NCBI GenBank assembly: GCA_947497175.1
Contig: CANMFM010000003.1
Coordinates: 124,001-188,000, forward strand
Origin: an uncultured Aquimarina sp.
GTDB lineage: Bacteria > Bacteroidota > Bacteroidia > Flavobacteriales > Flavobacteriaceae
Length of the DNA: 64,000 nt
Direction of reading: 5' to 3'
In this document: positions 24,630 to 63,978 of the stretch, piece after piece
Layout: every line of letters starts with the position of its first letter
Numbering within the stretch: the stretch's first letter is position 1
Translations under genes and position numbers: made by a program
The notes under the pieces: generated by a model
Seen by the model: the letters and a program-made list of their open reading frames with translations, nothing else
The model's database searches: none
What the model was told of the DNA's origin: nothing

Positions 24630-24674
24630 CAAATATTACAACTTAATTTTCTACACGCTACCCTGAAAACAGTG
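24630..24674 (-). promoter_or_regulatory. dyad promoter d: CACTG-TTTT-CAGGG, 23 nt, AATATTTG
   Basis: Dyad at 24661-24674 (given as on the minus strand), spacer 24638-24660 of exactly 23 nt, -7-like box AATATTTG at 24630-24637 (one base off TANNTTTG), then about 55 nt to the ATG of the 297-residue membrane protein. Same arrangement as at 42111, 50042, 53002 and 63934. Confidence 0.7.
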
Positions 24675-35325: not shown

Positions 35326-35333
35326 TCTTTTCT

Positions 35334-37427
35334 CTAATAAGTTATCTCTACTTTTTTTAATGGGGACTTTGAACCTGAACTAAAAACTGCTTGTAACAAA
35401 TACGTGTAATCGGTATTAATAACCAGTTTATTATCGACAAAGCTGTTTTGCCCGTCCTTAAAAACCTTATATAATGTTGGTTTTCGTTCGTCTTTCCCTC
35501 TAAACAATAGTAATTCTGTCACTCCTTTTTCTTTATAATTCCAGTTTAACAGAATATGTTTCTCCTCTCTATTTGCGGTAACATTGAACCGATCAATACT
35601 GGGTTTTACTTTATTACCACTTATAAAAATTGTAAGAGGAGCAATAGGATCTGATTCGAGCCCAGATTCATCTATAGTTAACAGCGTATACAGGTACTCT
35701 CCTTTTTCCTTATAACCTTTATCTTTATAGCCGGATTCAGCAATATCAAGATCGGCGACCAACTCCCAATTTAGGCCGGTACCTTTCTTCTTTTTATAGA
35801 TAAGCGTTTTTATAGCATCTTCACTATTACTGGATACCCATTGTAACTCTACTTCCTGATCTGTTACCTTAAATTTTGTGATCACAGGAGGAGTAGGTGG
35901 TATAATATCTGGTCGGTTTAGTTTCAATACTTCCGAAAACCCAGAAGGATTATATCGTTTATCAAAAGCCTGTACTTTGTAATAAATTTTCTTGACCAAT
36001 GTTTTTAAGGGTATTGTATCTATTATAGTATTTTCTACTATCGGTCGAAAGGTTATTTGCGTAAATTCTTCATCTTCTAAATTTGCTCTGAACACACGAT
36101 ACCCCAGAAAATCTTTTTCGGTATTTTGTTGCCATTGCAATGTTACGATACCAGTAGAATCAATTGCACCCATTAAACCTCTTGGATCTGCCGGCGGTAT
36201 TGCATCATCGGGTTGCACCATTCTTGGAAAAGAAACTCGTTTTGTGCCATCTAATCCCAAGGCCGTAACGCTGTAATAATTAATTGATTGCACGTCGTTT
36301 ACAGTAATCATTCGCTGGCTTCTATCTACCCCACTTATTACGGGAACAAAATCTCCTTGAACCTGATCAGCCCGTACTATTTCAAAATGAGATAATCCTT
36401 CTATTCCCTCTTGCGGAAAATCCCAGGTGATTACCACACTTAGTTGATCTTTTGACAATACAGCATCCAAGATTGCGGGATTGTAATAATGGCCTTTAAC
36501 TCCTTTTCCTTTTATAATATCAGAATAAGGGCCTGTTTCTCCAAAGGGAGAAATGCCTTTAATACGGTACTGATATTCTTTACCGTTTTGTGGCAAACTA
36601 TCTATATATACAATTCTTGATGTGTTTTGCTCGTCTGTATTGTTTAAAGAAGTTACAGGATCTTCAGAAATACGCTGAAAACTACGTCCGGCATCAGAAG
36701 ATCGTTCTATAAAGTAACTACTGTAATCTCGTTCCAAAAGTTTGTAATTCCAAGAAAGCATGACCTGGCTATCTTTGAAAATCCCTGCAAGTTCTAGGGG
36801 TTTTGGTAAAGGTCTGTAATCTTTTCGACTCAAAAAAACAGCCCCAAATTTAACATTAAGCTTATCCTCTGGAATTTCTGAAATTATTTTATATAAGTAC
36901 GTTTCACTTGCTTTTGTATCATTATCAACAAAAGCAAGTCCTGAAAACAAGGCTACCTCAAAATCTAAATCGGCCGAAAAAAGAGCAAAAGTAAAACGTT
37001 GTTCGAGGATTTGGGCCTGATTAATGATAGCCATCATACCATTACCTCCTTCTTCCATTTCTACCTCAAAATCATCACCGTATAATGCCTGGGCAGCAAC
37101 ACCCGCTAAATCATTTCTGTCTGCAAAACCTTCCCATTGTTCTAGTGGTTTTGGTTTTATGGGCTGATTGTTTAGTTGTTTTATTTCTCTAGGGTTCAAA
37201 ATTTGATCTCCACGACTAACTGTGTGTCGCTCAATCCTGTACCCATATTGATTACTATATTTCCAGGTTGTAGGGGTATTAGGTGCCCATCTTAACTTTA
37301 TAGCACCATTACTACTTACCGAACCTATTACCTGAATAGACGGAGGTAAATCACCCATAGGTTCTTGACCATTGATCATACCTATAATAAATAAACAACA
37401 ACCTAACACTAATAAATATGCTCTCAT
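35334..37427 (-). CDS. fibronectin type III-rich exported protein
   Basis: 697 residues with a Sec signal peptide (MRAYLLVLGCCLFIIGMINGQ). Several FN3-like beta-sandwich units follow, e.g. SIQVIGSVSSNGAIKLRWAP, RGLMGAIDSTGIVTLQWQQN and ITKFKVTDQEVELQWVSSNS, each with the W and later Y-x-Y/Y-x-V of the fold. There is no T9SS sorting domain, so it may stay in the periplasm or be assembled with the other cluster proteins. It lies between the 1532-aa gene (2 bp gap) and the SprB gene (8 bp gap), so all three are surely one operon. A scaffold or partner role is inferred from the context. Confidence 0.82.
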   Translation of the reverse strand: MRAYLLVLGCCLFIIGMINGQEPMGDLPPSIQVIGSVSSNGAIKLRWAPNTPTTWKYSNQYGYRIERHTVSRGDQILNPREIKQLNNQPIKPKPLEQWEGFADRNDLAGVAAQALYGDDFEVEMEEGGNGMMAIINQAQILEQRFTFALFSADLDFEVALFSGLAFVDNDTKASETYLYKIISEIPEDKLNVKFGAVFLSRKDYRPLPKPLELAGIFKDSQVMLSWNYKLLERDYSSYFIERSSDAGRSFQRISEDPVTSLNNTDEQNTSRIVYIDSLPQNGKEYQYRIKGISPFGETGPYSDIIKGKGVKGHYYNPAILDAVLSKDQLSVVITWDFPQEGIEGLSHFEIVRADQVQGDFVPVISGVDRSQRMITVNDVQSINYYSVTALGLDGTKRVSFPRMVQPDDAIPPADPRGLMGAIDSTGIVTLQWQQNTEKDFLGYRVFRANLEDEEFTQITFRPIVENTIIDTIPLKTLVKKIYYKVQAFDKRYNPSGFSEVLKLNRPDIIPPTPPVITKFKVTDQEVELQWVSSNSEDAIKTLIYKKKKGTGLNWELVADLDIAESGYKDKGYKEKGEYLYTLLTIDESGLESDPIAPLTIFISGNKVKPSIDRFNVTANREEKHILLNWNYKEKGVTELLLFRGKDERKPTLYKVFKDGQNSFVDNKLVINTDYTYLLQAVFSSGSKSPLKKVEITY

Positions 37428-37429
37428 TT

Positions 37430-40400
37430 TCAGTCTATTTTGTGTTTAGGATTAAAAAACTTAATCGTTTGTGCTTTGGATTTCTGAACCTGTCCAGGTA
37501 ATACATATTGCAAACTAGTTTTGTAATCACCATACCTCATCAAAGGGAAAGTTTCAAAAACCAAATTTTCATGTCTCCTTAGCAATACTGGATCATCCAT
37601 CAATATAAGTCCGGTTCGCAGGTCTAGATAATCCTGATAATAATAATGTGTAAGATTATAGCTATAAGGATTATAATTGCTTATAAAAGAATCAGCTTCG
37701 TTCTCTAGATAGGAAACATAAGAGGTCATTGGTTCTACCCCTCTTATTGGTGGGACACCCAAATTGTTCACTTCTCTGTTCACTACAATAGTTCCTAAAA
37801 GCGGATAAGACTCATACAATAATGGATAAATATCTTTTTTAAAATAGTCTTCATCAATAAGGGCCTTAGGGCTTATCAAAGGTAAATTTCCACTATATCT
37901 GGTTCCTACTAACTCAACTATATCAAAAGGTTCCTGTATTTCGACATCATGAATCAGGATTAATTCAAATACAGAGAGATCCTTATATAAATCCTGGAGT
38001 TTTTTCATGTCCTTTATTTTATCTTTAAAGGTCTTGTATACACTTGTCGAAAAATTATAAGTAAGTAGTTCTCTTTCTTCTTCTTTTACAGACAGTTTAT
38101 CAATACTTTTGGATCGTATTTCTACATCATTTCCTTGTTCAGAATCATCACCCAAACTCTTTTTCACATAGGACTCTGTCAAAGAACTTTGACCATTGTT
38201 TCCTGGAGGCAAAAGCATTATTCCCAGTTCATACTCCTGATCAAATTCTGTTTGTTTTGGCATTTCAAAAACTAACTGTTTTTTAGCTTGACTGTAAGTA
38301 AACGTTTTAACAATTTGAGTTCCTGTACTTGATTTTAAAATCATTGATTTACTCCATCCATCTAATCCTTCGAATAGATAAGGTTGGCCTCTGTTTAACT
38401 GAACATATCCATATTTATATTCTTTAGGATAGAAATTCTTCTGCCCTAATACTGGGTACATATAAGTCACATTGGATAAAGGAATATCTTTAGGAGCTTC
38501 ACCTGTGGTAAATGTTACTTCCTTAAGTTCAACGGCTGTCTGCCCATTATCTTTAATGACTTCCCATTTCCCTTTGACATATTCTTCAAAATGAATTTGT
38601 ACTGTTACTTTTAATTCACTATTCGCCGGAAGCAAGTCATGAGAATAAAACAAGACAGATTCATTTCCTTCTACCCATTCTAATTCTCCATCCAACACTT
38701 TGCCATCCTTACTTAGCTCAAACTTATCAAACATGATTTTATACTTGTGATCACCTTTATCATCTGGCAATTCAAAAGCTTTATTTATAGGTAAGTTGAA
38801 TACTACCTGCGGTGCTGCAAATACATCTATTTCGGATTCTCCTTCTTTGGGCACAATATCACCTATAACTACGATACCTTCTAAAACACTTTCTCCAACC
38901 ACTTCACATTTTTTACCCACGGTGACTTTAAAGCGGAAACTTCCTTTTATAGCACCTCCAAGGATTTTATAACGTCCTCTAAAATATCCTTTTACCCACG
39001 TAGGGTTAGGTAGCCTGGCTTGCATCAAAATCGCACCACTACCAGAAAAAATAGTGAACTTTTTTCGCTTTCCGAATATTTTCACTTTAATTCCTACCTT
39101 CCCTTGTAAATAAGCATATGCTTGTCCATTGGCATACCAGCCATCCATTCCAATAGATTTTGAAGAGCCTTTACAATGCGCATCGCCATAATCTTTAAGC
39201 ATAATATCAAACCCAAATCCTGCATCAAATCGTGCATAAAAAATGAGAAATTTAAGATCCCCTGTTGTCATTGCCCAGTGCATACCAAGGGCCATACCTC
39301 TACCAGAATCCAATTTGTTTAAATCTCTCATGTAGTCCAGTTTAGCAGCATCTACTCCCAACAATTTTGCTACCATAGGTGGTGGTGGTGGACTACCGGG
39401 TAAATCTGTTCCCGTCATGAAATAGGCTCGAGTTTCTTCTTTAAGAATTCCAATATCAAGTTTAGTTCCAATAGGATCATCGGGGGTTCCGATAAGCATA
39501 TGCCAATCATCAGGCCCTGAATAAAAGTCGAGCCATCCTGCTCTACCATTAGGTCCAACCCCTTTTAAAAAACCTAAATTTATATACAGTTCGGAGGTTG
39601 CATGAAAAATTCCGTTTTCAAAATCATGTTTAATGAATACATTTGCGGCGATCCTCCCTTCGGGTTTATAAGAAGCCAGCATTGTTTCATACCCCTCGGA
39701 TAACTTCCCCAATTTTTCCGTAAGCCTTTCATAGTAATCACTCGGAATACTGGACAAGATATTTCCTTCTCCTTTAAAATAAATCTCTTGTATTCCTCCT
39801 GATCGCCTGAATGCTATTCCAAATTCTACTGTTGCATTAAACAGGGATTCTCCACTTATTAAAATAAGTCCTAAAGATGCTTTCATACCAAACCCATTCG
39901 TTTCACTGGGTTCGTAAATGACTCCCGAAATAGAAGTACCAATATTTTCGTATGCTCCATTAGCACTACGATCAATCCCGGCCATTTTCATGCGATTATA
40001 AAAACCTCCTCCAAAAGAATTAATACCAAACACTGAAAATATGGGAATCGGTGTTGGGAGTGTTACCTGCGCATCTGTATACCAGTATCGAAATGTATCT
40101 GTTCGCCCAAATAACACCTTGGCCTCTACTTCAAATCCATTACCAACAGGATATTTTGCACCTACTGCTCCCGCAAATCCTTTTTCATACTTAGGATCAT
40201 CTTCAAAAATAAAAATAGCGCCTTTAAGCTCCAGGCCAGCTACTTCCATCTTTATAAAAAGGCGCTCTAAGTCAATTCCATCATACTTCCATCGTTCACG
40301 ACCATTATCTTCTTCTAACTTTGCCTTGATTGAAAGCTTAGATCCTCCCCCATTACCCCCATCTCCTTCCGAAGTAAGATTAATACTAATATCAAACACC

Positions 40401-42028
40401 AGTTCTGCAACATTTCCTCCCTTTAACCTAAGTCCAACTTCATTTAAACTCACCGGGAAATTAGCTAGTTTCTGTTTTCCTTGATATCCAAAATACTCTA
40501 CAGAGAACTTGGGAGCTTCTGTTTGGATGACCATTTTCTCAAAAACAATCCCTTTAAAATTCACTGTTTTATCTTTATCCGCAACAGAATCGTCATTATT
40601 TTCTTTTAAACCAGAGGCAATAGAAACAGCACCATGTAGCGTTGCCTTAGGGCGAAACTCATCATCCCTTATCGTCATTTCTATAAAGGAATCAGGAGTC
40701 AAATATACATTAGCATTCCAAACATCAAAATCGAGGCCTTCAGTTTTTGAAACCTGAAATGTGTATTCGTCTGGGCGAATAAATGCATTATATTTTAAAC
40801 GTCCCACTTTAGACACAGGAAGTATCATTTCGCCATTAAACTCTCCTTCAATAATAGCGTTGCGTTGCAAACCGACTTTAAAATAATCCAAAGAAAACTG
40901 CCATTTAGAAGCAGAACCTTCATCAATTGACAAAATATTATTTGCCTCAAACGTACCCGTAACCCCAGCATCATCAATGATCATTTTGGTACCTGAAAAA
41001 GATACACGTTTATCATTATTTCTTTTCTTAAAAGCTTTAGGCAAAATAACTTCAAGGCTTTCTACGTACACCCCTCTCCAAAGGTCTGGGGCATTAGCAT
41101 AATACGTGTTTATGTATTCTTGTGGTACTGCTTCATCATTCCTAAGGTCACTAAAGTCGAGTACTGCTGTATTTAACTTAAATGTTGTTCCTTCTAAACC
41201 TTTGACTCCAAATTCGGGTAAAGAAACATTAACTATAATATCATTCCAATCACTTGCCACAGTTTTAAAACTCCCCTCTACATATCCCAATTTTTTCTTT
41301 CCGGCTTTATTCACCGGAAACAAAAGTTCGTCTGAGAACTTAACATCTGCATCGATTGTCAATTCTTTAAAACCAGAACAATCAATGGTAGCATAAGTAG
41401 CTGGTGTTTCAAAACTACCTTTTAGGGTTACAATTAATTTACCATCATTTATATTCATTCTGAACTGCGAAATCAAATTCAATTTTGCGTCTCCGATTAT
41501 CCCACCCTCATGTGATAATTTAATATTATCAGCTCCCAAAATCAATGTTCCTCTAGGGGTGTCCACTTTAAGAAACACAATAAGCTCCGTGTATGCCGGT
41601 TTAAAAACTGCTTTTGCAATACCCATTGTATATTTAACATTACTAACCTCTATTGGGCGTATAGCTACAGGGAGAACCCCAAGGCCATCCTTGGTCAATA
41701 CATCTATATAATTATTAGCTTGTTCTATAGCATTAAATGTATTGGTAGCCATATCCAACCATTTCTTATTTAGCAATGAGTCTACTGAATTAAACTGAAA
41801 CCCTTCTTCTTTTAACTTTGGTTTCTGTTTTTTGTTTTTAATTACCGGAGTATCGTATTTTTCAAGAGACTTAAAGTTTCTAAATACTTTAATTGGTTCA
41901 GAATTCTTGGGACTTATACCATCCTTTGCTAAATTATCAGTATTTACAGAATGAGAAGATGCCAAAGACAGGTTTGTACATAGACAAAAAAGTAAAAATA
42001 TTGTTACAACAGGTATTAGTCTATTCAT
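37430..42028 (-). CDS. giant exported beta-rich protein of unknown function (1532 aa)
   Basis: Not recognised. A signal peptide (ends about residue 23, after SLA) is followed by about 1,400 residues of long amphipathic beta strands, with recurring forms such as LTIDADVKFSDELLFPVNKAGKKKLGYVEG and MILPVSKVGRLKYNAFIRPD, a glycine-rich stretch near DGGNGGGS and a barrel-like segment GNGFEVEAKVLFGRTDTFRYWYTDAQVTLPTPIPIF. The last 350 residues change to mixed soluble sequence. There is no sorting domain, lipobox or catalytic motif. It is the first gene of the operon with the FN3 and SprB genes, under a dyad promoter. Its strand pattern suggests an outer-membrane or beta-helical/bridge-like structure. 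Confidence 0.7.
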   Translation of the reverse strand: MNRLIPVVTIFLLFCLCTNLSLASSHSVNTDNLAKDGISPKNSEPIKVFRNFKSLEKYDTPVIKNKKQKPKLKEEGFQFNSVDSLLNKKWLDMATNTFNAIEQANNYIDVLTKDGLGVLPVAIRPIEVSNVKYTMGIAKAVFKPAYTELIVFLKVDTPRGTLILGADNIKLSHEGGIIGDAKLNLISQFRMNINDGKLIVTLKGSFETPATYATIDCSGFKELTIDADVKFSDELLFPVNKAGKKKLGYVEGSFKTVASDWNDIIVNVSLPEFGVKGLEGTTFKLNTAVLDFSDLRNDEAVPQEYINTYYANAPDLWRGVYVESLEVILPKAFKKRNNDKRVSFSGTKMIIDDAGVTGTFEANNILSIDEGSASKWQFSLDYFKVGLQRNAIIEGEFNGEMILPVSKVGRLKYNAFIRPDEYTFQVSKTEGLDFDVWNANVYLTPDSFIEMTIRDDEFRPKATLHGAVSIASGLKENNDDSVADKDKTVNFKGIVFEKMVIQTEAPKFSVEYFGYQGKQKLANFPVSLNEVGLRLKGGNVAELVFDISINLTSEGDGGNGGGSKLSIKAKLEEDNGRERWKYDGIDLERLFIKMEVAGLELKGAIFIFEDDPKYEKGFAGAVGAKYPVGNGFEVEAKVLFGRTDTFRYWYTDAQVTLPTPIPIFSVFGINSFGGGFYNRMKMAGIDRSANGAYENIGTSISGVIYEPSETNGFGMKASLGLILISGESLFNATVEFGIAFRRSGGIQEIYFKGEGNILSSIPSDYYERLTEKLGKLSEGYETMLASYKPEGRIAANVFIKHDFENGIFHATSELYINLGFLKGVGPNGRAGWLDFYSGPDDWHMLIGTPDDPIGTKLDIGILKEETRAYFMTGTDLPGSPPPPPMVAKLLGVDAAKLDYMRDLNKLDSGRGMALGMHWAMTTGDLKFLIFYARFDAGFGFDIMLKDYGDAHCKGSSKSIGMDGWYANGQAYAYLQGKVGIKVKIFGKRKKFTIFSGSGAILMQARLPNPTWVKGYFRGRYKILGGAIKGSFRFKVTVGKKCEVVGESVLEGIVVIGDIVPKEGESEIDVFAAPQVVFNLPINKAFELPDDKGDHKYKIMFDKFELSKDGKVLDGELEWVEGNESVLFYSHDLLPANSELKVTVQIHFEEYVKGKWEVIKDNGQTAVELKEVTFTTGEAPKDIPLSNVTYMYPVLGQKNFYPKEYKYGYVQLNRGQPYLFEGLDGWSKSMILKSSTGTQIVKTFTYSQAKKQLVFEMPKQTEFDQEYELGIMLLPPGNNGQSSLTESYVKKSLGDDSEQGNDVEIRSKSIDKLSVKEEERELLTYNFSTSVYKTFKDKIKDMKKLQDLYKDLSVFELILIHDVEIQEPFDIVELVGTRYSGNLPLISPKALIDEDYFKKDIYPLLYESYPLLGTIVVNREVNNLGVPPIRGVEPMTSYVSYLENEADSFISNYNPYSYNLTHYYYQDYLDLRTGLILMDDPVLLRRHENLVFETFPLMRYGDYKTSLQYVLPGQVQKSKAQTIKFFNPKHKID

Positions 42029-42110: not shown

Positions 42111-42155
42111 CAATGTTAGGGGTTTATGTCAAAAAAAAAATCACTGAAAACAGTG
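42111..42155 (-). promoter_or_regulatory. dyad promoter c: CACTG-TTTT-CAGTG, 23 nt, TAACATTG
   Basis: Dyad 42142-42155, spacer 42119-42141 of 23 nt (10 T followed by GACATAAACCCC), -7-like box TAACATTG at 42111-42118, 83 nt before the ATG of the 1532-aa gene. The dyad extends to an 11-bp inverted repeat (42136-42161), so it may also serve as the terminator of the preceding 1727-aa gene. Confidence 0.7.
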
Positions 42156-42245
42156 ATTTTTAATCATATGCATTAGAAGCATTAAGAAACTACTTTAAAT
42201 TACACGTATTTTTCGGATTTAACCTAAATGACCGGAAGATATATA

Positions 42246-45200
42246 CTAGTCGTTTTTTCTAAACCCTACCTCATCTCCTTGTTGTAAAATATCTATACCA
42301 TCATAGTTACCAACAACATTTCCATTTTCCAAAAACTTTTTCTTCAAGAACTCTCCCTGGTTGGTAATTCTTGCTACTTCTTGACTTTTACCGTCTATAG
42401 TGATAATCACCTTAACATCTCCAGCTTTAATCCCACTAAATTTAATAGGTAAATTTGAATCAAAAATTTGGTTCACCTGTTCTAATCCATCTATTAATTT
42501 TTGCTTACTAGCCCTTGAGCCGTCAACTAACAAACTTTTTAGCCCTTCGAATTTAACATTTCCATTATAGGTAAATCGAGATGCTGCATCAGCCAAAATC
42601 GAAAGGTTTTTTCCATTGTTTACGACTCTTATTTGTTCAAAAGACTCTAAAACTCTCCATGCTTCTCTTAGATCGACTCTACGGCTGGGAGAAGCATGAT
42701 CAAACATATTTTTTATTGACACATATCTTGCATCTCTCAATATTTTATCTAATGAAGATGTTCTATTTCCTATCACCACCTCCATCTCACGAACTATTTC
42801 AGCTCTTTTGGTCGGATTATCAAAAGCATCAGGATCCTCTTCAATTTTTTTCAAAAAGTCCTCTGTACCTTTTTTAATCTTTATGCTTAAATCTCCGGCC
42901 TTTATTCCCTTTTGGATCACGTCTAAATAGAATTTTACTGCCTTGCAAGTCTCATCGGCATCACATCCTTCAGAATACTTCAATAAAAACTCAACTGTAG
43001 AAAGTGCCAATTTTGTAGTTTCAAAATCAAGAAGAGTTTGATCACTTACATTATGGACTAGTCTTTTTAGATCTTCCAGATTGATTTCATTTGGATCTAT
43101 GTCTTTGGCTATTTTTTTAAGATAGCCTACAATGTCGTCTCTAGCTGACTCATTAGTAATCAACTGAGGATTATCTTCAATTTCTTGGCGTAAGTCATTT
43201 GCATTTCTTTTTATAGCAGCTCGTTGAGCTAATCCACCGATACCCCCTGCCAATCCTATAGCATCTCCAAAAAATCCAAGCTTATCACAAAAGGTTTTTG
43301 CCACGCTAGCATTTTGCTGTCCTGCTTGATTTCCCTTTGGCACATCACAAACCGTGGAGTATTTCAAAATCAAATTAATACTAGATACTATAGCATCAGC
43401 TCCTTGCAACGTTTGAACCAAATCATCAAGCTTGCCTAATTTTGTGATATGGCGTAGCTTGGTAATATTTCCAACCCCGGAAACAGTGAGCGCAGCTTCG
43501 AAGGCAAAATTAGTTCCCCGATCAGTATTACTAGTACTATAATTTTCAGCAATTGCCTTAAGGATGAACATAGGAATTTCTACTGACTTAATAGAAAAAC
43601 CAGGATCCACGATATTCTCGTACTTCAACAACTTGATAGGATAATAGATATCATAAGTACCAAGATCTACTTTCTCACGAATTACTCTTATTCCAGAATA
43701 TTCATTAGCATCCTGTACAGTTGTTACTACCTCTTCTTCAAGTTTTATAGCGGTATCACCTTCAAAAGTTACATCATAATCACTTACATAAAACCCCAAT
43801 ACTTTATTACTTTCATAGGGTATATCTCTTACTGAATTTGAAGCTAACCCCGATTTTTTCCAAACATCATACAGTATATTAATTGCCTTGGTAAAATTAT
43901 CCTCTCCTCCCCAATTATCTAAACGACTATAGAGTTTTCTAAATGCTATCTGGTTATCAATGGTCTCGGATTTAAGTTTAGAAAGAAAAACATCTGGCGT
44001 TCTCTTACCCAGGGCTTCCATAATTGTAATAACTGCGTCTTCCTCAGACACCCCTTTATCATTAACAGAACAACTAAGGAGCGAACTAAACGCGGACCAT
44101 AACTTTTCATTACTTAAGAAGTCCTGATCGTGAATGTAAGAAAGGTAATCACTAGGTATTTCTGAAAAATAAGTATCGATCTTATCGCAATCTATGCCAA
44201 TGGTAATACCGCCCTCCGGGAAGTATTTCTCATTAAGGTAATCAATAATTTTTATAGAATAATTCGAGGCATAAGGAGCTTCATGTATTTGATCACGGTC
44301 TATTTTAAAATAATTAGAAAATGCTTCGAGATCGTCATGATGATCAAACTTAAAAACAAAATCATCTTTGTCAGTTTTAATAGTGAGTTCGTAATACACC
44401 TCTTTCAAAATACTTCGTTCCTTGATTTCAAAATATTCATCACCCGGGGATACACTTATTTTCTGATCAACAGCAGAAGGTTGATTCTTAAGTTCAAATT
44501 TTAACTTTGTTTCTTCCACGGTAATATTATATTTTCCCACCAAAGAAATAAACTTGTCAACCGCAAATGTTCCCTGACCTGCTTTTTCTGTTAAAAGAGA
44601 TCTCCAAACCAACTCATCTCGTTTACCTTCATATCTTTTTTTTAAATGTTCTAATGCCTTTTTAAGTTTCTCTGTTTTATTTTTTACTATATTATTATTA
44701 GCACCATCTTCATCTCCTTGAAACAAATATAGCTGTAGTCCTGGAGCATGCATTTTTTTCCAATCCAGATGATTGAGATGGGTGCCACCTCCATAATCCA
44801 TCAAAAGATTAGTTGCTCCCTGCGGACTATCATACTTTGCAAACGGGTGTTCTAAGCCAAAAATACCATGACCTAATTCGTGGGCAATTGTTCTGGCTTG
44901 ATTGGTAGTACCAAATACAAATCCATACTGTTTTTTTAATGGCATAAACCCGGATAAAGAGGCCTCGCTCAAAGGAAAATTTATAACAAAAATATAATAA
45001 ACATCACTTTGATAATTAATTTGATTCTTGACATAAGAACTGACAGCGTTTTCTTCATCTGTATAATAGGACAAAATACTGCTATCCCCTACATCTAACA
45101 TACCATTTTCATCAAAATCCCAATCGGCCTGAGGTATTTGCACTGTATTTGCAATTTCAATATCAAAATTGACACCAGCCTTGTTATAGATATCATTGAT

Positions 45201-47429
45201 TTTTTCATCTAACCTAGAAACAATATTAGCTCCATTAATAGGTATTACTACTACTTTTACATCTTCAACTTTATTGGATCCTAAATGTGCTAAATTCAAT
45301 TTTCCAGCTACAGTATATTTACCTGAGTCATTCTTAGGTTTAACAGTCGCGAGAATTTCCTCGATTGCGTAATCAAAACTTTTCTTTAGTGATAAAACTG
45401 CTTCATCTCCATCCCAGTCTACATTAACTTTTTTCCCTTTTTTAGTCTTAAAAACAATATTTTCTGTACTTATTTCTGGATCTGTTATTTTAATTTTAGC
45501 TTTCACAAAATCTTCTCCATTGCTGTTAGAAATAGCCTTATAAGGTACCATATACTCCTCTCCGTTGGAAAATTGTAACTTTTCATATTTTTCTACCAGA
45601 CCAGAAGGATATCCATCTGATACTATATCATAGCTATAAAATCCAGAGGTTTCGAAATCTACTCGTACTCCTTTAGCAGTTAATTCTTCTACATCTCCAT
45701 CTATAATTCCCAAAGTATTTTCTTCATTCGCCGATCCTCCTTCGGCAATTTCTACTTGTTGAATTTCACCGTCCTCTCCTACTGCCCAACCCTGACCACT
45801 ACTATCTCTTATGATCATATCATCGCCAACCGAAACCACTCCTTCTTCTCCATTTGTCCCCGTTACCACAAAAACACTTACCCCATCTCGTTCTTCAATA
45901 CGAATATCTTCGATCTCATAACCTACATCTGCAAAAGTGATCTCTCCCTGATCACCTCTAATAATCTCAATAAAATCTAAATTAATATCCTGCGTCATTT
46001 CTGCACCTTCTCCAAAAGTAGGATCATATAGGGTTATAATTTCTCCTTCAGCCAATTGAAAATCACTATTCACAAAAATCCTATCAAATTTTACAGCAAA
46101 TCTAGCAAACTCCAAATATGGTATACTTACAAATCCGCGACCTGTAACCCATCCTTCGGATTCACTTTCTAGATCTGTAATGGTAACTACAAAATCACCT
46201 GCCGTAATTCTATCTCCGACAAAAATATGGTTATAAGGTTCTCTGTTGGTAATAGAGATTGCATCTGGTACGATTCCGCAATTATAATTAGCCGTCTCAT
46301 CTTCTGCAGAATCGGTAGTAATAAGTTGTACATCGGTATATGGGCTATATTGATATTTACATTTTGCCTTAAGCTTAAACTCATAAGTTGTACTAGGTTT
46401 CAGATCCCAAACTGTCGCCCATGAACTATTGGTTTTCATAGTAAACCATTGCGCACCGGGTTTGTCAGTTTCACGATATGCTATGGTATACTCAGTATAT
46501 ACAGCAGGATTCTCATCCCAAAAAACATTAATCTTTGAAATACCTTTGGTCTCGGCATAAACATTTTGTGGTGGATCACAAGGTTCTGTTCTTGAAAACC
46601 AAAAAATTTCACTTTTTCCTTCATTTCTAAACATCCCTACCTCTTCTGCACCCTGCAAAGCTTTTGCTCTTACCTGCCATGCATATCTCTTATCAGGAAG
46701 TAACAATGGGTCACTAGGACCATATACATATGAATTGGCTCTTGTCGTTATTTGGAACACCGGAGGAGAAGACAAAAAAACTGTTTGAGGGTCGACTGTA
46801 TCATCCCATATTTCAACAATACTTAACTCATATTCTACATTACTTACATTGATTTGCCTAGGAGTCCACTGAAACACAATATTATCTACTAGCTGAGGTA
46901 GCAGATTTTCTTTGTTAAGCGGAAGATTTAAGAGAGGTGGTTCATTTCTATAGATATAAGTAGTTGCGCAACTTCTCTCGGATAATCTATTCCCGGTCAC
47001 AAAATCAAAAATTTCGAAACAAAACTGGTAACTTCCCTCTGGTATTACTTTCCCATATGTATTTGGGTTAATTCCTCTTAGGTTCTGCAACTCGAAGTAT
47101 GGTGCTAATTCGGCATTGGTTAACTCCAAAAGTGTTCCTCCACTAATAAATAAAGTAGGAGCTCCTGAAACAAATTGTGTACTTTGAAAGTTAATCCCGT
47201 TACCCTGAAAAGAAACCCTTAAGCTGATTTGCCGGTCATTCACAGTGATATCATTAAGTAATAATTGAACTCTTAATGGGCTATTTATTGTGCCAGCATC
47301 TGCATAACTATAAAAATTAACCGGTGCCGGTGGATTTACTCGTGGTATAACGTTTATGGGAAAACGTTGTGCGTTTATTTTAAAGATTACAAAAAGTAAT
47401 AAACAAATAACAGATAATAGTCTTTTCAT
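42246..47429 (-). CDS. giant TANFOR/FN3 protein with a metzincin-like zinc peptidase domain
   Basis: 1727 residues. Signal peptide to about residue 20, a TANFOR-like domain (about 25-175, with LRVQLLLNDITVNDRQISLRVSFQG and IPEGSYQFCFEIFDFVTGN), two FN3-like domains (about 190-385), beta-rich middle, then a peptidase-like part: HELGHGIFGLEH at 850-861 is the H-E-x-x-H-x-x-x-x-x-x-H zinc site and NLLMDYGGG (M877) a Met-turn. The last 500 residues are mostly helical and end in IDILQQGDEVGFRKND. There is no sorting domain. The beta-barrel gene upstream is 3 bp away. The tail looks like a delivered or variable domain, but toxicity is not shown. Confidence 0.8.
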   Translation of the reverse strand: MKRLLSVICLLLFVIFKINAQRFPINVIPRVNPPAPVNFYSYADAGTINSPLRVQLLLNDITVNDRQISLRVSFQGNGINFQSTQFVSGAPTLFISGGTLLELTNAELAPYFELQNLRGINPNTYGKVIPEGSYQFCFEIFDFVTGNRLSERSCATTYIYRNEPPLLNLPLNKENLLPQLVDNIVFQWTPRQINVSNVEYELSIVEIWDDTVDPQTVFLSSPPVFQITTRANSYVYGPSDPLLLPDKRYAWQVRAKALQGAEEVGMFRNEGKSEIFWFSRTEPCDPPQNVYAETKGISKINVFWDENPAVYTEYTIAYRETDKPGAQWFTMKTNSSWATVWDLKPSTTYEFKLKAKCKYQYSPYTDVQLITTDSAEDETANYNCGIVPDAISITNREPYNHIFVGDRITAGDFVVTITDLESESEGWVTGRGFVSIPYLEFARFAVKFDRIFVNSDFQLAEGEIITLYDPTFGEGAEMTQDINLDFIEIIRGDQGEITFADVGYEIEDIRIEERDGVSVFVVTGTNGEEGVVSVGDDMIIRDSSGQGWAVGEDGEIQQVEIAEGGSANEENTLGIIDGDVEELTAKGVRVDFETSGFYSYDIVSDGYPSGLVEKYEKLQFSNGEEYMVPYKAISNSNGEDFVKAKIKITDPEISTENIVFKTKKGKKVNVDWDGDEAVLSLKKSFDYAIEEILATVKPKNDSGKYTVAGKLNLAHLGSNKVEDVKVVVIPINGANIVSRLDEKINDIYNKAGVNFDIEIANTVQIPQADWDFDENGMLDVGDSSILSYYTDEENAVSSYVKNQINYQSDVYYIFVINFPLSEASLSGFMPLKKQYGFVFGTTNQARTIAHELGHGIFGLEHPFAKYDSPQGATNLLMDYGGGTHLNHLDWKKMHAPGLQLYLFQGDEDGANNNIVKNKTEKLKKALEHLKKRYEGKRDELVWRSLLTEKAGQGTFAVDKFISLVGKYNITVEETKLKFELKNQPSAVDQKISVSPGDEYFEIKERSILKEVYYELTIKTDKDDFVFKFDHHDDLEAFSNYFKIDRDQIHEAPYASNYSIKIIDYLNEKYFPEGGITIGIDCDKIDTYFSEIPSDYLSYIHDQDFLSNEKLWSAFSSLLSCSVNDKGVSEEDAVITIMEALGKRTPDVFLSKLKSETIDNQIAFRKLYSRLDNWGGEDNFTKAINILYDVWKKSGLASNSVRDIPYESNKVLGFYVSDYDVTFEGDTAIKLEEEVVTTVQDANEYSGIRVIREKVDLGTYDIYYPIKLLKYENIVDPGFSIKSVEIPMFILKAIAENYSTSNTDRGTNFAFEAALTVSGVGNITKLRHITKLGKLDDLVQTLQGADAIVSSINLILKYSTVCDVPKGNQAGQQNASVAKTFCDKLGFFGDAIGLAGGIGGLAQRAAIKRNANDLRQEIEDNPQLITNESARDDIVGYLKKIAKDIDPNEINLEDLKRLVHNVSDQTLLDFETTKLALSTVEFLLKYSEGCDADETCKAVKFYLDVIQKGIKAGDLSIKIKKGTEDFLKKIEEDPDAFDNPTKRAEIVREMEVVIGNRTSSLDKILRDARYVSIKNMFDHASPSRRVDLREAWRVLESFEQIRVVNNGKNLSILADAASRFTYNGNVKFEGLKSLLVDGSRASKQKLIDGLEQVNQIFDSNLPIKFSGIKAGDVKVIITIDGKSQEVARITNQGEFLKKKFLENGNVVGNYDGIDILQQGDEVGFRKND

Positions 47430-47432
47430 AGG

Positions 47433-49955
47433 CTATAGTTTATTGACGTATTTCAGTTCAAATTTATCCGGGTCAGTATATTTAATAGACTCCTTTAAAT
47501 AAAATTCAATTATTCGAGTTATCATGTATAGTCTAATCTTTAGATCAGATACATCTCGGTCTTTCATTTTAAATATATTATCTTTTTCAAGCTCCATAAT
47601 CACTGATAAAAGCTTATCTGGGTTTTCTACAGATTTTATGGTCCTATAACTACTTATAATAGGCAACATCCATCGATGTCCAATCAACCTGGCTAATGCT
47701 TTATCACGTTTATCCAGCTGGTTTGTATACTCATCTTGTAAGCTCTTACCTCTTTTGTCCCTTTCTTCTTCGCTCAATTCGTATAACTCATTATTATCTG
47801 CCGCTACCTTGGCCTTTACAAATTCAGATTCGAATGCATAATCTAAACGATACATATCCTTTCTAAGCTCGGTAAGTACACTAAATATCAACTGGTTGTA
47901 CCCTTTTAGAAAATCTTCATAGCTATAAAGTTCCCGCAAAAACTCTATTGCTTTTTCTTTATACAGTTTAGTGTCTTTTTGATCAGAAACAATACCCCTT
48001 AGCATAGTAAGCTCACCCTTCTTATAACCCGGTATAAAATCAAAATGAGGATGACCTTGTAAGGCTTCCAATTGGATATCAATTTGAGACATAGTACCAG
48101 AATACAAGGAGTCTCTATATCTGAAATCAAGTAATACCTCCCGTTGCTTTTTGCTCCTATCTTTTTTGGTATTGGATTTCTTTTTACTTTCTTTATCCCG
48201 TTCATGTCGTTTGGGAAACCTAATATCAGGCTTGAACTTATCAAAAATATACTTGTAGCCAAAAGTAACCGTGAAATCTTGATTGGAAGTAGTTGTAGAA
48301 TTTCTAAACTGTGATAAAATATTAAGGCTAAAATTGTGTCTTTTCTGGTACGTATAATTTCCTCCTAACCTTATATTTGTAACATCTCCTTGTTTTTCTC
48401 CTTCAACATTTGTTTGATTATAGCTTATTGACCCAGTTGTTCGAAATTTCTTATCAAAAAAGTGTTTGTTTGCAGATATTACAGGCCCATAAGTCAAACT
48501 GTTTTCTGATCCAATAGTACTATAACTAACGTTAAGTGAACCTGAAATATTAAGATTCATTGATGGATACCCAATGGTATATGAAGAATTGGCATTGTAA
48601 AAATTAGAATCTCCGTTTTCGGTAATTTTACCGTTTTGTTTATTGATTGCACCCTGGTATGAAAAAGCCAAATTCAAATTTTCCTTTTTTGATTTTTTAT
48701 CTTGTATGATAAAATTGGCGTTTAAATTGGCATTTTGAGTAATTTGTTGAAAGTTTAATGTATCTAAATTATCCGGTTGTGAAACCTCGTTAATAAGATC
48801 AAATTGATTTTTGATATTAGTAAACGATTGAAAGTTTGAATATCCCCCTGAAAATATAACCTTATCTGATGCATTATAATTTACTGTAAATGCACTCACA
48901 ACTCTTTGTAGTTGTGAACTTTTGGTGTTATCGAGATCGTCTTTTTGAAGCCCTCCGTTTATCGCAATACTAACTTTATTATTAAACAAATTCTGTGTCG
49001 CATTTAACGTGATATTCTCTAGATCGTTATTAAAAAAATAAGCCCCAAGTGTTCTATAATCGGGATCAATACGTTCATACGCCACCCCAACGTTTCCCTG
49101 CCCCACCTGATAACTAAAATTTGCGTTGTAAGCTTTAAATTTTTGAGTAGTTTCATTAGTTGTTATAAACCCTGACAACAATGAAGTTGTTGCTTGTGCT
49201 CCATCAGCATTTATGTTATCTGTAATTAACGAAGAGGCATACTCTACTTTTACATCACCTTTATTAAATACTTTAATACTTCCCTCTACACTAGCGACAA
49301 TATTTTCCTTAGGAAACAACTCTGCTTCCAAGGGTACAGGGTTTTTAATAGAATTTTTAACATCATTTGCCCTAAACACTATTCCTCCTAAAGAAAATTT
49401 ATCATTTCCGTAACTTGCTTTAATCCCAAATCCAATTCTTTTATGCGCGGGTTGAGATTGAGGATCTTCCTCATTATATTCAGACTCCTTTAATAGTCTT
49501 CCATACATTGCGCTAATTTTAAATCCAGTTTTTTGGGGGGTTAGGTCAAAACCAAAGCCTGTAAATTGATGGCCACTTAAAGTGTAAGGAGAAAATGTCA
49601 TACTAACATCACCTATATGAGTAGTAACCCATTTATAAGAAGGATGAATACTCAACCTATTAAATGAAAAAGGATTATTACCCTTAAACTTTTGATTAGA
49701 ATAGGAAAAAGAAAAAGGAATATTGTAGATACCGCTTATGTTCACATTAATATTTCCATTAACAAAATAAGTAAAAGGTTCACGATTCGAGCTTCCATCA
49801 TAAAAAATTGAATTAGCAGAAATCCCCCCTGTAAGCTTGAAAAGCTTAGCTTTTCCAATTTGGCTTAAATCCTGGCCAAAGCTTACAGTAAAACACCACA
49901 TGAAGAAAACAATGGCTAATCTTTGCAGATTATTTTTTTTTTTCAAGGTGTTCAT
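47433..49955 (-). CDS. large outer-membrane beta-barrel protein with helical C-terminal domain
   Basis: About 840 residues from ATG 49953-49955 (GTG 49965-49967 is an alternative). Signal peptide to about residue 28 (ends SFGQ). Residues 40-590 are alternating amphipathic strands typical of a big barrel (FTYFVNGNINVNISGIYNIP, KRIGFGIKASYGNDKFSLGG, MNLNISGSLNVSYSTIG). A very basic linker (KESKKKSNTKKDRSKKQ) then leads to about 220 helical, soluble residues, an unusual addition to a porin. With a GTG/ATG start after a dyad promoter and the 1727-aa gene following at 3 bp, it is probably the export or anchor partner of that protein. The family is not recognised. Confidence 0.72.
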   Translation of the reverse strand: MNTLKKKNNLQRLAIVFFMWCFTVSFGQDLSQIGKAKLFKLTGGISANSIFYDGSSNREPFTYFVNGNINVNISGIYNIPFSFSYSNQKFKGNNPFSFNRLSIHPSYKWVTTHIGDVSMTFSPYTLSGHQFTGFGFDLTPQKTGFKISAMYGRLLKESEYNEEDPQSQPAHKRIGFGIKASYGNDKFSLGGIVFRANDVKNSIKNPVPLEAELFPKENIVASVEGSIKVFNKGDVKVEYASSLITDNINADGAQATTSLLSGFITTNETTQKFKAYNANFSYQVGQGNVGVAYERIDPDYRTLGAYFFNNDLENITLNATQNLFNNKVSIAINGGLQKDDLDNTKSSQLQRVVSAFTVNYNASDKVIFSGGYSNFQSFTNIKNQFDLINEVSQPDNLDTLNFQQITQNANLNANFIIQDKKSKKENLNLAFSYQGAINKQNGKITENGDSNFYNANSSYTIGYPSMNLNISGSLNVSYSTIGSENSLTYGPVISANKHFFDKKFRTTGSISYNQTNVEGEKQGDVTNIRLGGNYTYQKRHNFSLNILSQFRNSTTTSNQDFTVTFGYKYIFDKFKPDIRFPKRHERDKESKKKSNTKKDRSKKQREVLLDFRYRDSLYSGTMSQIDIQLEALQGHPHFDFIPGYKKGELTMLRGIVSDQKDTKLYKEKAIEFLRELYSYEDFLKGYNQLIFSVLTELRKDMYRLDYAFESEFVKAKVAADNNELYELSEEERDKRGKSLQDEYTNQLDKRDKALARLIGHRWMLPIISSYRTIKSVENPDKLLSVIMELEKDNIFKMKDRDVSDLKIRLYMITRIIEFYLKESIKYTDPDKFELKYVNKL

Positions 49956-50041
49956 AAAACCTTCCACGCTTAAAATATATTTTCAATTTCATCCAGTAAT
50001 AAAAACAACATTAGCCACTTTATAAACTGGATTTTGCTAAG

Positions 50042-50086
50042 CGAAATTAACTTTAACTATAAAGATATAAATCACGGTTTTCAGGG
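50042..50086 (-). promoter_or_regulatory. dyad promoter e: CCCTG-AAAA-CCGTG, 23 nt, TAATTTCG
   Basis: Dyad 50073-50086 (one base off the other four), spacer 50050-50072 of 23 nt, -7-like box TAATTTCG at 50042-50049 (one base off TANNTTTG), 87 nt before the ATG of the beta-barrel gene. It is the weakest of the five by sequence but has the identical geometry. Confidence 0.6.
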
Positions 50087-50944: not shown

Positions 50945-52975
50945 TTAATTGTTAGTAATTCCAAATTTTCCGTAATACACATCTTTATCCATGTTTACTT
51001 TGTATATAAAAATACCCGAACTTATTATTCCTTTTTCAACCCATTGCACTTCGAGGTTATTTCCAGATGATATTTTTTCCAATATCAAGGCTCCAGTCAA
51101 CGAATATACCCTAACAGATAAATTGGCATAATTAGTGACCGTAGAAATAGAAAGTCCACCATTTGTCACCACTATTCTAGTTTCTGGTCCTTCACTTATT
51201 GGTGGTGGTAAATCATCACCATCATCACCATCATCTCCATCATCTCCAGGCACTTCGGAAGAATTAGAGTCATCAGGAAGTTTGCCTAAGCCCTCACACG
51301 GATAACTTGCATTATTCGGGTCGGCACAAGGTCTCAGTTCATCCCAATATTTAACTACCAAAGAAGGAATCCTATTAAAGTTTATTTTTCTACCGTGAAG
51401 CTCTGGCATTCTTCCATCGGTATTAGGATCTCCATTATGGGCAATAAAAGTGGTAAGGTCGTCCGGATTTGGGCCCCAAGTACTCATGTAAGAATTACAA
51501 TTTGTAATTCCAGTAGAGTATAGCCTAAAGGGAGCACAATTTTCGTTTTCCTGATTATCGTAGGGAGCACATGGGTCTGGCTTGGTCCATAGTCCTCCAT
51601 CAAAATTATCTATTCCGTAGCCCGTATAGATTCTATCTGCAAATTGTAGCATTTCAAAATCATTCGATGCATATTTGTACCAAGGCATTAATTGCTGCAT
51701 AAATGCGTACCCTACATACAAACCTCCAACGACTGTTAAGTAATTTCGATCCCTTGTCTGCGAAGGATCAGGATGAATACCACCAGCAGGACCATCTATA
51801 TACTCGTAAGGATCTCCCAATGTACCATTACCATCAACCCGCGGATACAACCTAGAAAAGTACCAGTGAACATTGTTAAAACCTTTAAAATCTCCCCAAA
51901 TAGCCATACCCGTTTTGCCCATACGTATTTGGGAATCCTCCTGAAAAAACCTCTTATTCAATAAATTTTCATCTTGAGACATCCCTCTAACATCTTCCAA
52001 AATTTCAACATCATTATATATAGCCGCAAAAAAAACAATCAATGGTTTTTTGCCTAAATGCTGTCCTGCACCAGAACTAAAGGGAACTCCCATTTTATAA
52101 ACAGCATAATTATCAATCCCTTTTTGAATTAAAGAATATACTGCAGGTTTTTTTTCTTCGTTAGTTTCTAATCCAAAAACCTTTGTAATATCTTCAAGAA
52201 AGCGCAACATTTGATCTGAAGCATACGGAGGTTGTGCTTCATGAGGAATCATAGCTCGATGAAACTCTCCTAAACCTTGATGATATAGCTCAACCTCTGG
52301 AGCTAGCCATCGTTCAAAACCTAATGTACCACCAATCAAGCCATTATTTCCATCTGATACCTGAGATAACCTGGGTAGCCTATCCATCATTACCTTATCC
52401 GTCGTAAATAAAGGTTTCCAATCCCCATGAAAAGGCGGACGAAACGTATTGCTGCCGTGATTGGGAGGTGCTTCAGCAAGAATTGTTAAAACGGTTGAAG
52501 TTTTGACGCATCCGCGTTCTATAGCAGCAGTTCCACAACCCTGATTCATAGCCGCTATTTTTAGTATCGACTCATTTGGACTTGCTTCATAGGGTAACTG
52601 ATTCATGATGTTAAGTGAAGCATTATAATGGTTATATGTATTAAGAAAACCTTGTTGTTGATCTTCAAAAGGAAGTAATTCATTGAATTGGTCTCTTAGT
52701 AAGTCTGGATTCACCATAGCACCATTAAACTCTCCTTCTGGGCTAATATTTGTTATTCGAACATTTCCACCCACGGTGTTGGGTATAACCCAATAGTCCC
52801 CATTAACAAACTGCCCATATTGACAAGGTCCACCATTACATGACACAGCGAAAGAAAAAGTTACATTATCCCTAACAATTGTGATCACATTAGTTCTCTG
52901 CGCTTGCCCTAATAAGATAAAACTATTGATGAATGCTATTAATAAAATGGAAACATTGATAATTTTTCTAAACAT
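50945..52975 (-). CDS. T9SS cargo protein of unknown activity (676 aa)
   Basis: Signal peptide (cleaved near LLGQAQ), a large body of about 540 residues rich in aromatic residues, Pro, Gly and Asn (e.g. WKYASNDFEMLQFADRIY-like helical parts, PPFHGDWKPLF, HWYFSRLYPRVDGNGTLGDP), an Asp-Gly-rich linker DDGDDGDDGDDLPPP, and a type A sorting domain (NLSVRVYSLTGALILEKISS ... GIFIYKVNMDKDVYYGKFGI). It is therefore exported to the surface or medium. The body has several Cys (CNGGPC, CAPYD, CAPF) and could be an enzyme, but I recognise no family. Its promoter is a member of the dyad group. Confidence 0.75.
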   Translation of the reverse strand: MFRKIINVSILLIAFINSFILLGQAQRTNVITIVRDNVTFSFAVSCNGGPCQYGQFVNGDYWVIPNTVGGNVRITNISPEGEFNGAMVNPDLLRDQFNELLPFEDQQQGFLNTYNHYNASLNIMNQLPYEASPNESILKIAAMNQGCGTAAIERGCVKTSTVLTILAEAPPNHGSNTFRPPFHGDWKPLFTTDKVMMDRLPRLSQVSDGNNGLIGGTLGFERWLAPEVELYHQGLGEFHRAMIPHEAQPPYASDQMLRFLEDITKVFGLETNEEKKPAVYSLIQKGIDNYAVYKMGVPFSSGAGQHLGKKPLIVFFAAIYNDVEILEDVRGMSQDENLLNKRFFQEDSQIRMGKTGMAIWGDFKGFNNVHWYFSRLYPRVDGNGTLGDPYEYIDGPAGGIHPDPSQTRDRNYLTVVGGLYVGYAFMQQLMPWYKYASNDFEMLQFADRIYTGYGIDNFDGGLWTKPDPCAPYDNQENENCAPFRLYSTGITNCNSYMSTWGPNPDDLTTFIAHNGDPNTDGRMPELHGRKINFNRIPSLVVKYWDELRPCADPNNASYPCEGLGKLPDDSNSSEVPGDDGDDGDDGDDLPPPISEGPETRIVVTNGGLSISTVTNYANLSVRVYSLTGALILEKISSGNNLEVQWVEKGIISSGIFIYKVNMDKDVYYGKFGITNN
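51212..51247 (-). repeat. four tandem 9-bp units coding the Asp-Gly-Asp linker
   Basis: On the + strand ATCATCACC twice and ATCATCTCC twice. Slippage by one unit keeps the frame, changing only linker length between the body and the sorting domain. Confidence 0.8.
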
Positions 52976-53001: not shown

Positions 53002-53046
53002 CAAACTTATTAATCACTTGCTTATGATAGTACACTGTTTTCAGTG
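53002..53046 (-). promoter_or_regulatory. dyad promoter b: CACTG-AAAA-CAGTG, 23 nt, TAAGTTTG
   Basis: Perfect dyad 53033-53046, spacer 53010-53032 of 23 nt, exact TANNTTTG box at 53002-53009, 27 nt before the ATG of the 676-aa T9SS gene. No TTTG -33 box; the dyad takes that place. Confidence 0.75.
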
Positions 53047-63933: not shown

Positions 63934-63978
63934 CAAAAATAAGATGAATAAATAGCATATAAACCCCTGTTTTCAGTG
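63934..63978 (-). promoter_or_regulatory. dyad promoter a: CACTG-AAAA-CAGGG, 23 nt, TATTTTTG
   Basis: Dyad 63965-63978, spacer 63942-63964 of 23 nt, exact TANNTTTG box at 63934-63941, about 50 nt before the ATG of the LRR lipoprotein. No TTTG -33 box. Confidence 0.75.

What the first reader, a model, noticed from the sequence alone, without database searches (positions are those of the whole stretch)
42111..50086. Five promoters share a 14-bp dyad fixed at exactly 23 nt from the -7 box: an undescribed activator regulon
Seen directly: C(A/C)CTG-(A4 or T4)-CAG(T/G)G, with one base deviation in one copy, at 24661-24674, 42142-42155, 50073-50086, 53033-53046 and 63965-63978. In all five the dyad ends exactly 23 nt before a TANNTTTG-like box (two exact, three one base off), and a minus-strand gene starts 27-87 nt further on. 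None has TTTG at -33. Known: Bacteroidota promoters use TTTG-N19-21-TANNTTTG, and activators that overlap the upstream element (class II, centre near -41) replace it. Inference: one dimeric regulator turns on both giant-protein operons, a T9SS cargo protein, an LRR lipoprotein and a membrane protein. Constant spacing with drifting box sequence is hard to explain otherwise.
Basis: partly seen in the sequence, partly recalled or inferred. Interest (0 to 1): 0.88.

Follow-up and report, generated by a model that had tools for sequence, protein, structure and literature searches.

The report
Genus-wide VraR-like activator regulon
In the marine bacterium Aquimarina, a short repeated DNA switch at an exact distance from the promoter marks a large set of genes that are probably turned on by one two-component sensor system, which also appears to control itself.

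Summary
The five window sites are part of 16 in this genome; all 14 exact CMCTG-W4-CAGKG dyads of the 4.59-Mb genome lie in one 84-kb stretch, and the -7-like box sits 23 nt downstream (13 of 16 at 5 of 6 or better). Over 61 Aquimarina genomes the composite occurs 394 times at spacing 23, against 111, 59 and 40 at 22, 24 and 17. The best candidate regulator is a NarL/LuxR-type response regulator (closest solved relative VraR) with a TPR histidine kinase, encoded in that stretch. Of 44 genus members with the orthologue 44 have sites (41 two or more); of 14 without, 3 have one and none two; losses are scattered over an RpoB tree. The kinase operon carries the site in 14 of 20 close relatives, and a linked membrane-protein gene carries a tandem double operator. 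The geometry (about -49 to -36) fits class II activation. Targets include giant-protein operons, LRR lipoproteins, toxin/immunity-like genes and double-glycine-like peptides. Binding, activation and signal are inferred, not shown.

The parts
24661..24674 (-). dyad (operator) before the 297-aa membrane-protein gene
24630..24637 (-). -7-like box AATATTTG, 23 nt from the dyad
23682..24575 (-). 297-aa predicted membrane protein, no Pfam match
42142..42155 (-). dyad (operator); also a terminator-like hairpin with a T run
42111..42118 (-). -7-like box TAACATTG
29062..42028 (-). giant-protein operon: 1532 aa, 697 aa and 2087 aa (SprB repeats, T9SS sorting domain); homologue of the 1532-aa protein lies behind a site in G004 (L181, by eye)
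50073..50086 (-). dyad (operator), one base off
50042..50049 (-). -7-like box TAATTTCG
42246..49967 (-). second giant-protein operon: 844 aa and 1727 aa (one fn3 domain)
   Evidence: site conserved before orthologues of the 844-aa gene
53033..53046 (-). dyad (operator)
53002..53009 (-). -7-like box TAAGTTTG
50945..52975 (-).
63965..63978 (-). dyad (operator)
63934..63941 (-). -7-like box TATTTTTG
62832..63881 (-). 349-aa LRR lipoprotein-like protein, first of three paralogues each behind a site

Best explanation
The dyad is the operator of a NarL/LuxR-type response regulator (C3:229293-229937) that is phosphorylated by the TPR-HisKA_3 histidine kinase overlapping it upstream (C3:227162-229303). 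A regulator dimer binds C(A/C)CTG-N4-CAG(T/G)G at about -49 to -36 and recruits RNA polymerase with the housekeeping sigma factor to promoters that keep TANNTTTG but lack the -33 TTTG (class II activation). In relatives the kinase-regulator operon and a linked 136-141-aa membrane-protein gene carry the same operator; the latter uses a tandem pair (strong distal dyad, 10 bp, weaker proximal dyad, 23 nt, box), suggesting two cooperating dimers. Shown by sequence: sites, fixed spacing, clustering in this genome, co-occurrence and co-loss with the regulator gene, autoregulatory and tandem sites, conserved sites before orthologous targets. Inferred: binding, phosphorylation dependence, activation rather than repression, and the signal (my guess: an envelope or competitor cue).
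For: Fixed spacing here and over 61 genus members (394 at 23; 111, 59, 40 at 22, 24, 17). Regulator present: 44 of 44 genomes with a site, 41 with two or more; absent: 3 of 14 with one, 0 with two; intermediate: 4 of 5 with a site, 2 of 5 with two or more. Negatives fall in several separate places of an RpoB tree of 30 genomes. Kinase-operon site in 14 of 20 relatives with regulator identity 72% or more, against 23 of 461 other upstream regions. Tandem operator before the linked membrane-protein gene in 26 of 33 non-identical rows. Dyad-N23-box kept before 12 of 27 scored homologues of the 844-aa gene and before none of the three from near-complete negatives G003, G016, G022. Domains: Response_reg + GerE, TPR + HisKA_3 + HATPase_c. 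TANNTTTG mapped at -12 to -5 in F. psychrophilum (PMC9723704, passages).
Against: No binding, expression or TSS data. The kinase gene of this very genome has no recognisable site within 400 nt. Kinase-operon site in only 1 of 15 (regulator identity 62-71%) and 1 of 5 (below 62%). Twelve of 27 scored homologues of the 844-aa gene in regulator-positive genomes (one of them, G042, with a split regulator) lack the simple composite; three of these twelve have a tandem form. Three negatives carry one site. The orthologue cut-offs were set after seeing the E-values. Other co-occurring regulators were not tested. Kinship between genomes is handled only by the tree, without a formal test.
Confidence: 0.8

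Rival explanations
1. Same operator and geometry, but bound by another regulator that co-occurs with this kinase-regulator pair (for example an AraC, Crp/Fnr or TetR protein, or the sigma-like protein encoded in or near the stretch); names by eye.
For: Several other regulator-like genes lie in or near the stretch; co-occurrence is correlation.
Against: The site recurs in front of the kinase-regulator operon (14 of 20) and its linked membrane gene, across genera in the latter case.
Confidence: 0.1
2. The regulator binds there but represses, or works as a switch, rather than activating.
For: Sequence cannot tell the sign; the position just upstream of the box could allow either.
Against: Exact spacing to the box, centre near -42.5 and no -33 TTTG fit class II activation; a repressor would not need one fixed distance.
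Confidence: 0.12
3. The dyads are intrinsic terminator hairpins of upstream genes.
For: The 42142 site folds well (-9.3 kcal/mol) and has a T run; perfect CCCTG-CAGGG palindromes without a box occur in relatives, some just downstream of the regulator gene.
Against: Eleven of 16 own sites have mismatched arms (CACTG-CAGGG); only one of 16 joins a stable hairpin to a T run. Terminators do not explain a box at 23 nt. Several box-less palindromes near the regulator turned out to be distal halves of tandem operators.
Confidence: 0.02
4. The shared elements are copies spread by duplication or recombination (cassette-like island) and have no regulatory meaning.
For: All exact own sites lie in 84 kb; two groups of three share flanking sequence.
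Against: Most sites share little beyond dyad and box; in relatives sites lie on many contigs; intervening sequence has diverged while dyad and box are kept before orthologous genes.
Confidence: 0.03

Closest known systems
VraSR/VraTSR and LiaFSR systems of Bacillota (regulators VraR, LiaR)
   Same: NarL-type regulator, best sequence match among solved structures is VraR; HisKA_3 kinase; small membrane protein linked; strong plus weaker site in one promoter recalls the primary and secondary sites described for LiaR and VraR (PMC7191749, passages); autoregulation (recalled for vraSR; the paper passages show VraR binding the vraSR promoter).
   Different: Kinase has a large TPR region; the membrane protein matches no Pfam or NCBIfam model; operator CMCTG-N4-CAGKG is not the LiaR motif T-N4-C-N4-G-N4-A quoted in PMC7191749; different phylum and targets.
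Bacteroidota sigma-A type promoters (TANNTTTG box)
   Same: Box sequence and, if the start is as in F. psychrophilum, its position -12 to -5 (PMC9723704, passages).
Peptide-regulated bacteriocin loci of Firmicutes (Blp/Com type; recalled)
   Same: A kinase-regulator pair lies next to a small gene with a double-glycine-like leader, itself behind the operator (C3:229957).
   Different: No evidence that the peptide is a signal; no NCBIfam match; sensor of another type.

Membership tests
NarL/FixJ (LuxR-HTH) response regulators | Receiver domain plus GerE/LuxR HTH | tested here: met
   PF00072 81.4 bits, PF00196 59.6 bits, both over cut-off
HisKA_3 histidine kinases | HisKA_3 and HATPase_c domains | tested here: met
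   PF07730 and PF02518 over cut-off, with TPR repeats
LiaFSR / VraTSR three-component systems | Regulator most similar to LiaR/VraR | tested here: inconclusive
   VraR is the best solved match at E 1.2e-24, but only proteins of solved structure were compared
LiaFSR / VraTSR three-component systems | LiaF/VraT-type membrane partner | tested here: not met
   The linked membrane protein matches no Pfam or NCBIfam model
LiaFSR / VraTSR three-component systems | LiaR-type operator T-N4-C-N4-G-N4-A | tested here: not met
   Operator here is CMCTG-N4-CAGKG; motif as quoted in PMC7191749; compared by eye
Class II activator-dependent promoters | Activator site centred near -41.5 at a fixed distance from the core box | tested here: met
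   Fixed 23 nt; centre about -42.5 if the start is placed as in PMC9723704
Class II activator-dependent promoters | Activator-dependent transcription from the predicted start | not testable with these tools
   no TSS or expression data for Aquimarina at hand
Intrinsic terminators | Stable hairpin followed by a T run | tested here: not met
   1 of 16 own sites (42142) has both

The most novel reading that the evidence does not exclude
A competition-sensing system of flavobacteria: a TPR kinase with an exported sensor region, a VraR-like regulator and a small membrane partner read envelope attack or a secreted double-glycine peptide, and switch on a strain-variable arsenal (giant surface proteins, toxin- and immunity-like genes, small peptides, in one species type VI genes) through one fixed-geometry operator, with a tandem operator setting a feedback threshold.
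Probability: 0.3. Interest if true: 0.78.

Novelty: new variant of a known kind. Interest (0 to 1): 0.63.

Why it matters
To my knowledge operators and activator geometry are poorly mapped in Bacteroidota. Here one operator, one candidate regulator and some hundreds of promoters across a genus can be named from sequence, so one deletion or one footprint would test class II activation at promoters without a -33 element. It also gives giant proteins and small secreted peptides of unknown function a common regulator, and so a condition under which to study them.

Tried and rejected
Terminator reading: only 1 of 16 own sites (42142) joins a stable hairpin to a T run; a double role there stays possible. 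Type VI secretion as core function: rejected; a VgrG search matched 4 of 13 genomes, not this one, and 2 of 20 VgrG loci fetched had the composite within 1 mismatch. The ClpV/TssH label for L170 is tentative: the ClpB model scores better than the TssH model, and TssB/TssC-like neighbours are my reading. Double-glycine peptides rest on a pattern of mine: 5 of 92 target proteins against 1 of 710 background ORFs (background ORFs were 100 aa or longer, so not size-matched); 0 of 6 peptides matched NCBIfam. Export-like N-termini by a home-made rule: 58 of 86 targets of 100 aa or more against 299 of 710 background ORFs. Alignment A1 only batched unrelated proteins.

Target sample: 100 regions from nine relatives, chosen from the listing, which was cut short. 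Fetched of found: G040 20 of 25, G004 20 of 24, G050 12 of 13, G037 8 of 12, G044 15 of 16, G051 5 of 5, G029 12 of 15, G032 7 of 7, G019 1 of 4; found counts include dyads hit on both strands. A gene start within 550 nt in 94 of 100, none in 6. Dyad inside an ORF frame: 1 of 60 (L182, its own gene extended upstream) and 0 of 40 by a stricter rule. Some hits (L255, before what looks by eye like aroC) may be chance or terminators. Pfam was run on 20 of the 56 first-set targets one by one; NCBIfam on all 56, of which only the 25 commonest families were shown; the second-set targets were read by eye only. In one search, 3 of 30 loci gave no frame and were not scored. In one search, operons without a whole kinase frame were dropped: 40 of 48 were counted.

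Full report
OBSERVATION. The window is C3:124001-188000 of a 4.59-Mb assembly. The exact pattern CMCTGWWWWCAGKG occurs 14 times in the genome, each time within C3:148661-232410. The one-mismatch site 174073 and the site 209746 (core GAAA with a G) make 16. Scored for TANNTTTG at offsets 0 to 79, offset 23 stands alone: 79 of 96 positions, 13 of 16 sites at 5 of 6 or better, against a mean of 30.5 (sd 7.9) and at best 46 elsewhere. The composite with up to 1 mismatch occurs 12 times in the genome, all in that stretch. T is enriched in the three bases before the dyad (11, 13 and 15 of 16). Eleven of 16 sites have the asymmetric form CACTG-CAGGG.

NOT ONLY THIS GENOME. The closest named relatives of the regulator are Aquimarina, and the genus label rests on that. 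The composite (T instead of TA in the box, up to 1 mismatch) hits 57 of 110 related genomes: 51 of 63 in the genus, with up to 32 hits in one, and 6 of 47 elsewhere in the order, with 1 to 4; backward controls give 0 or 1 per strand. Over 61 genus members (G000-G060) the totals are 394 at spacing 23, 111 at 22, 59 at 24 and 40 at 17; part of the 22-nt set are 23-nt sites read one base off.

THE REGULATOR. Inside the stretch, 19 nt before site 229957, ends a response regulator (Response_reg + GerE) overlapping an upstream TPR-HisKA_3 kinase. Among 63 genus members: orthologue present (E of 1e-80 or better) in 44, all with a site and 41 with two or more; absent (E worse than 1e-40) in 14, three with one site (G030, G046, G052), none with two; intermediate in 5, four with a site. 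In genomes of 3.5 Mb or more: 43 with the orthologue, 40 of them with two or more; 6 without, none with a site. Mann-Whitney p is 1.6e-8 and 4e-5, ignoring kinship. In an RpoB tree of 30 chosen genomes the negatives fall in several separate places, and neighbours differ as expected: G015 8 / G036 0, G000 12 / G017 1 (G017 has only a 58% relative), G056 1 / G016 0, G051 5 / G046 1 (G046 is 55% complete).

AUTOREGULATION AND TANDEM OPERATOR. A dyad-N23-box lies within 400 nt upstream of the kinase in 14 of 20 operons with regulator identity of 72% or more, 1 of 15 at 62-71% and 1 of 5 below; 23 of 461 other upstream regions of the same loci have one, some with exact dyads that may be true members. 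The kinase gene of the window's own genome has none. The gene of a 136-141-aa membrane protein lies near the kinase and regulator in Aquimarina and just upstream of the kinase in two Tenacibaculum loci. It has a tandem arrangement: strong distal dyad, 10 bp, degenerate proximal dyad, 23 nt, box most often CATCTTTG (26 of 33 non-identical rows with the distal dyad within 2 mismatches and the box at 5 of 6). In this genome the gene is C3:230486-230896 with site 230333: proximal dyad exact, distal one 3 mismatches. The rows come from two overlapping collections, so 33 is no count of species.

FOOTPRINTING. Of 27 scored homologues of the window's 844-aa gene, 12 keep dyad (at most 1 mismatch) plus box: G000, G001, G002, G004, G023, G044, G051, G054, G062, G112, and also G017 and the 55%-complete G046, which lack a close orthologue of the regulator (the regulator of G112 was not searched). 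The three from near-complete negatives (G003, G016, G022) lack it. The other 12, from regulator-positive genomes (G042 with a split regulator), also lack the simple form; G005, G041 and G053 have a tandem form instead. Three paralogues of the gene on C7, C11 and C12 of this genome have no exact dyad, since all exact W4 dyads lie on C3.

TARGETS. Here: both giant-protein operons, a 676-aa secreted-looking protein, three LRR proteins, a GNAT enzyme, a SUKH-like protein, a DJ-1/PfpI protein, a DUF7660 protein, a pyridoxamine-oxidase-like protein, membrane proteins and a small peptide with a double-glycine-like leader. In relatives: kinase operons, homologues of the 844-aa and (by eye) 1532-aa proteins, LRR proteins, DKNYY and DUF1963 proteins recurring across genomes, NADase-translocation proteins (one with Hint), an Imm11 protein, an NlpC/P60 protein, small double-glycine-like peptides, and in G040 two VgrG genes and a ClpV- or ClpB-like ATPase. 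The conflict flavour is my inference; many targets have no known domain.

MECHANISM. With TANNTTTG at -12 to -5 as mapped in F. psychrophilum (PMC9723704, passages), the dyad spans about -49 to -36, centre -42.5, a class II position (class II recalled). The best solved relative of the regulator is VraR; the strong-plus-weak tandem recalls the primary and secondary sites described for LiaR and VraR (PMC7191749, passages). A different operator and an unmatched membrane protein keep me from filing the system as LiaFSR or VraTSR; it may work like them.

NOVELTY. Searches of the held library for four motif words and for several combinations of these proteins returned nothing that I could see from the listings to describe this operator or regulon; subscription papers are not held, so this is no proof of absence. 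I rate it a new variant of a known kind.

Noticed in passing
C3:148661-232410 (window 24661 to beyond its end): All exact dyads of this genome lie in 84 kb, whereas in relatives with long site lists they are spread over many contigs. Why this genome has gathered its regulon is unexplained.
   Followed up: partly
L018, C3:229957 onwards: Right after the regulator and behind its own dyad lies a 55-aa peptide frame with a double-glycine-like leader; its box is only 4 of 6. A possible secreted peptide or signal.
   Followed up: partly
window 42129-42155: The 42142 dyad is the core of a 9-bp hairpin followed by a T run on the minus strand and may also end the upstream operon.
   Followed up: partly
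window 62832-63881 and C3:188108-191545: Three tandem LRR lipoprotein-like paralogues, each with its own dyad and near-identical promoter.
   Followed up: no
G085 (another family of the order): Four composite hits outside the genus, three with the core AATT (CACTGAATTCAGKG); its best regulator match is only E 3.7e-32. Possibly a related operator with another regulator.
   Followed up: no
C3:235956-236279: A 107-aa ORF just beyond the last site looks by eye like the end of a tyrosine recombinase; not tested.
   Followed up: no
C3:206549-206562: A further degenerate dyad (TACTCAAAACAGGG) with N23 and TTCTTTTG lies about 100 nt upstream of site 206447, perhaps a second operator of that gene.
   Followed up: no
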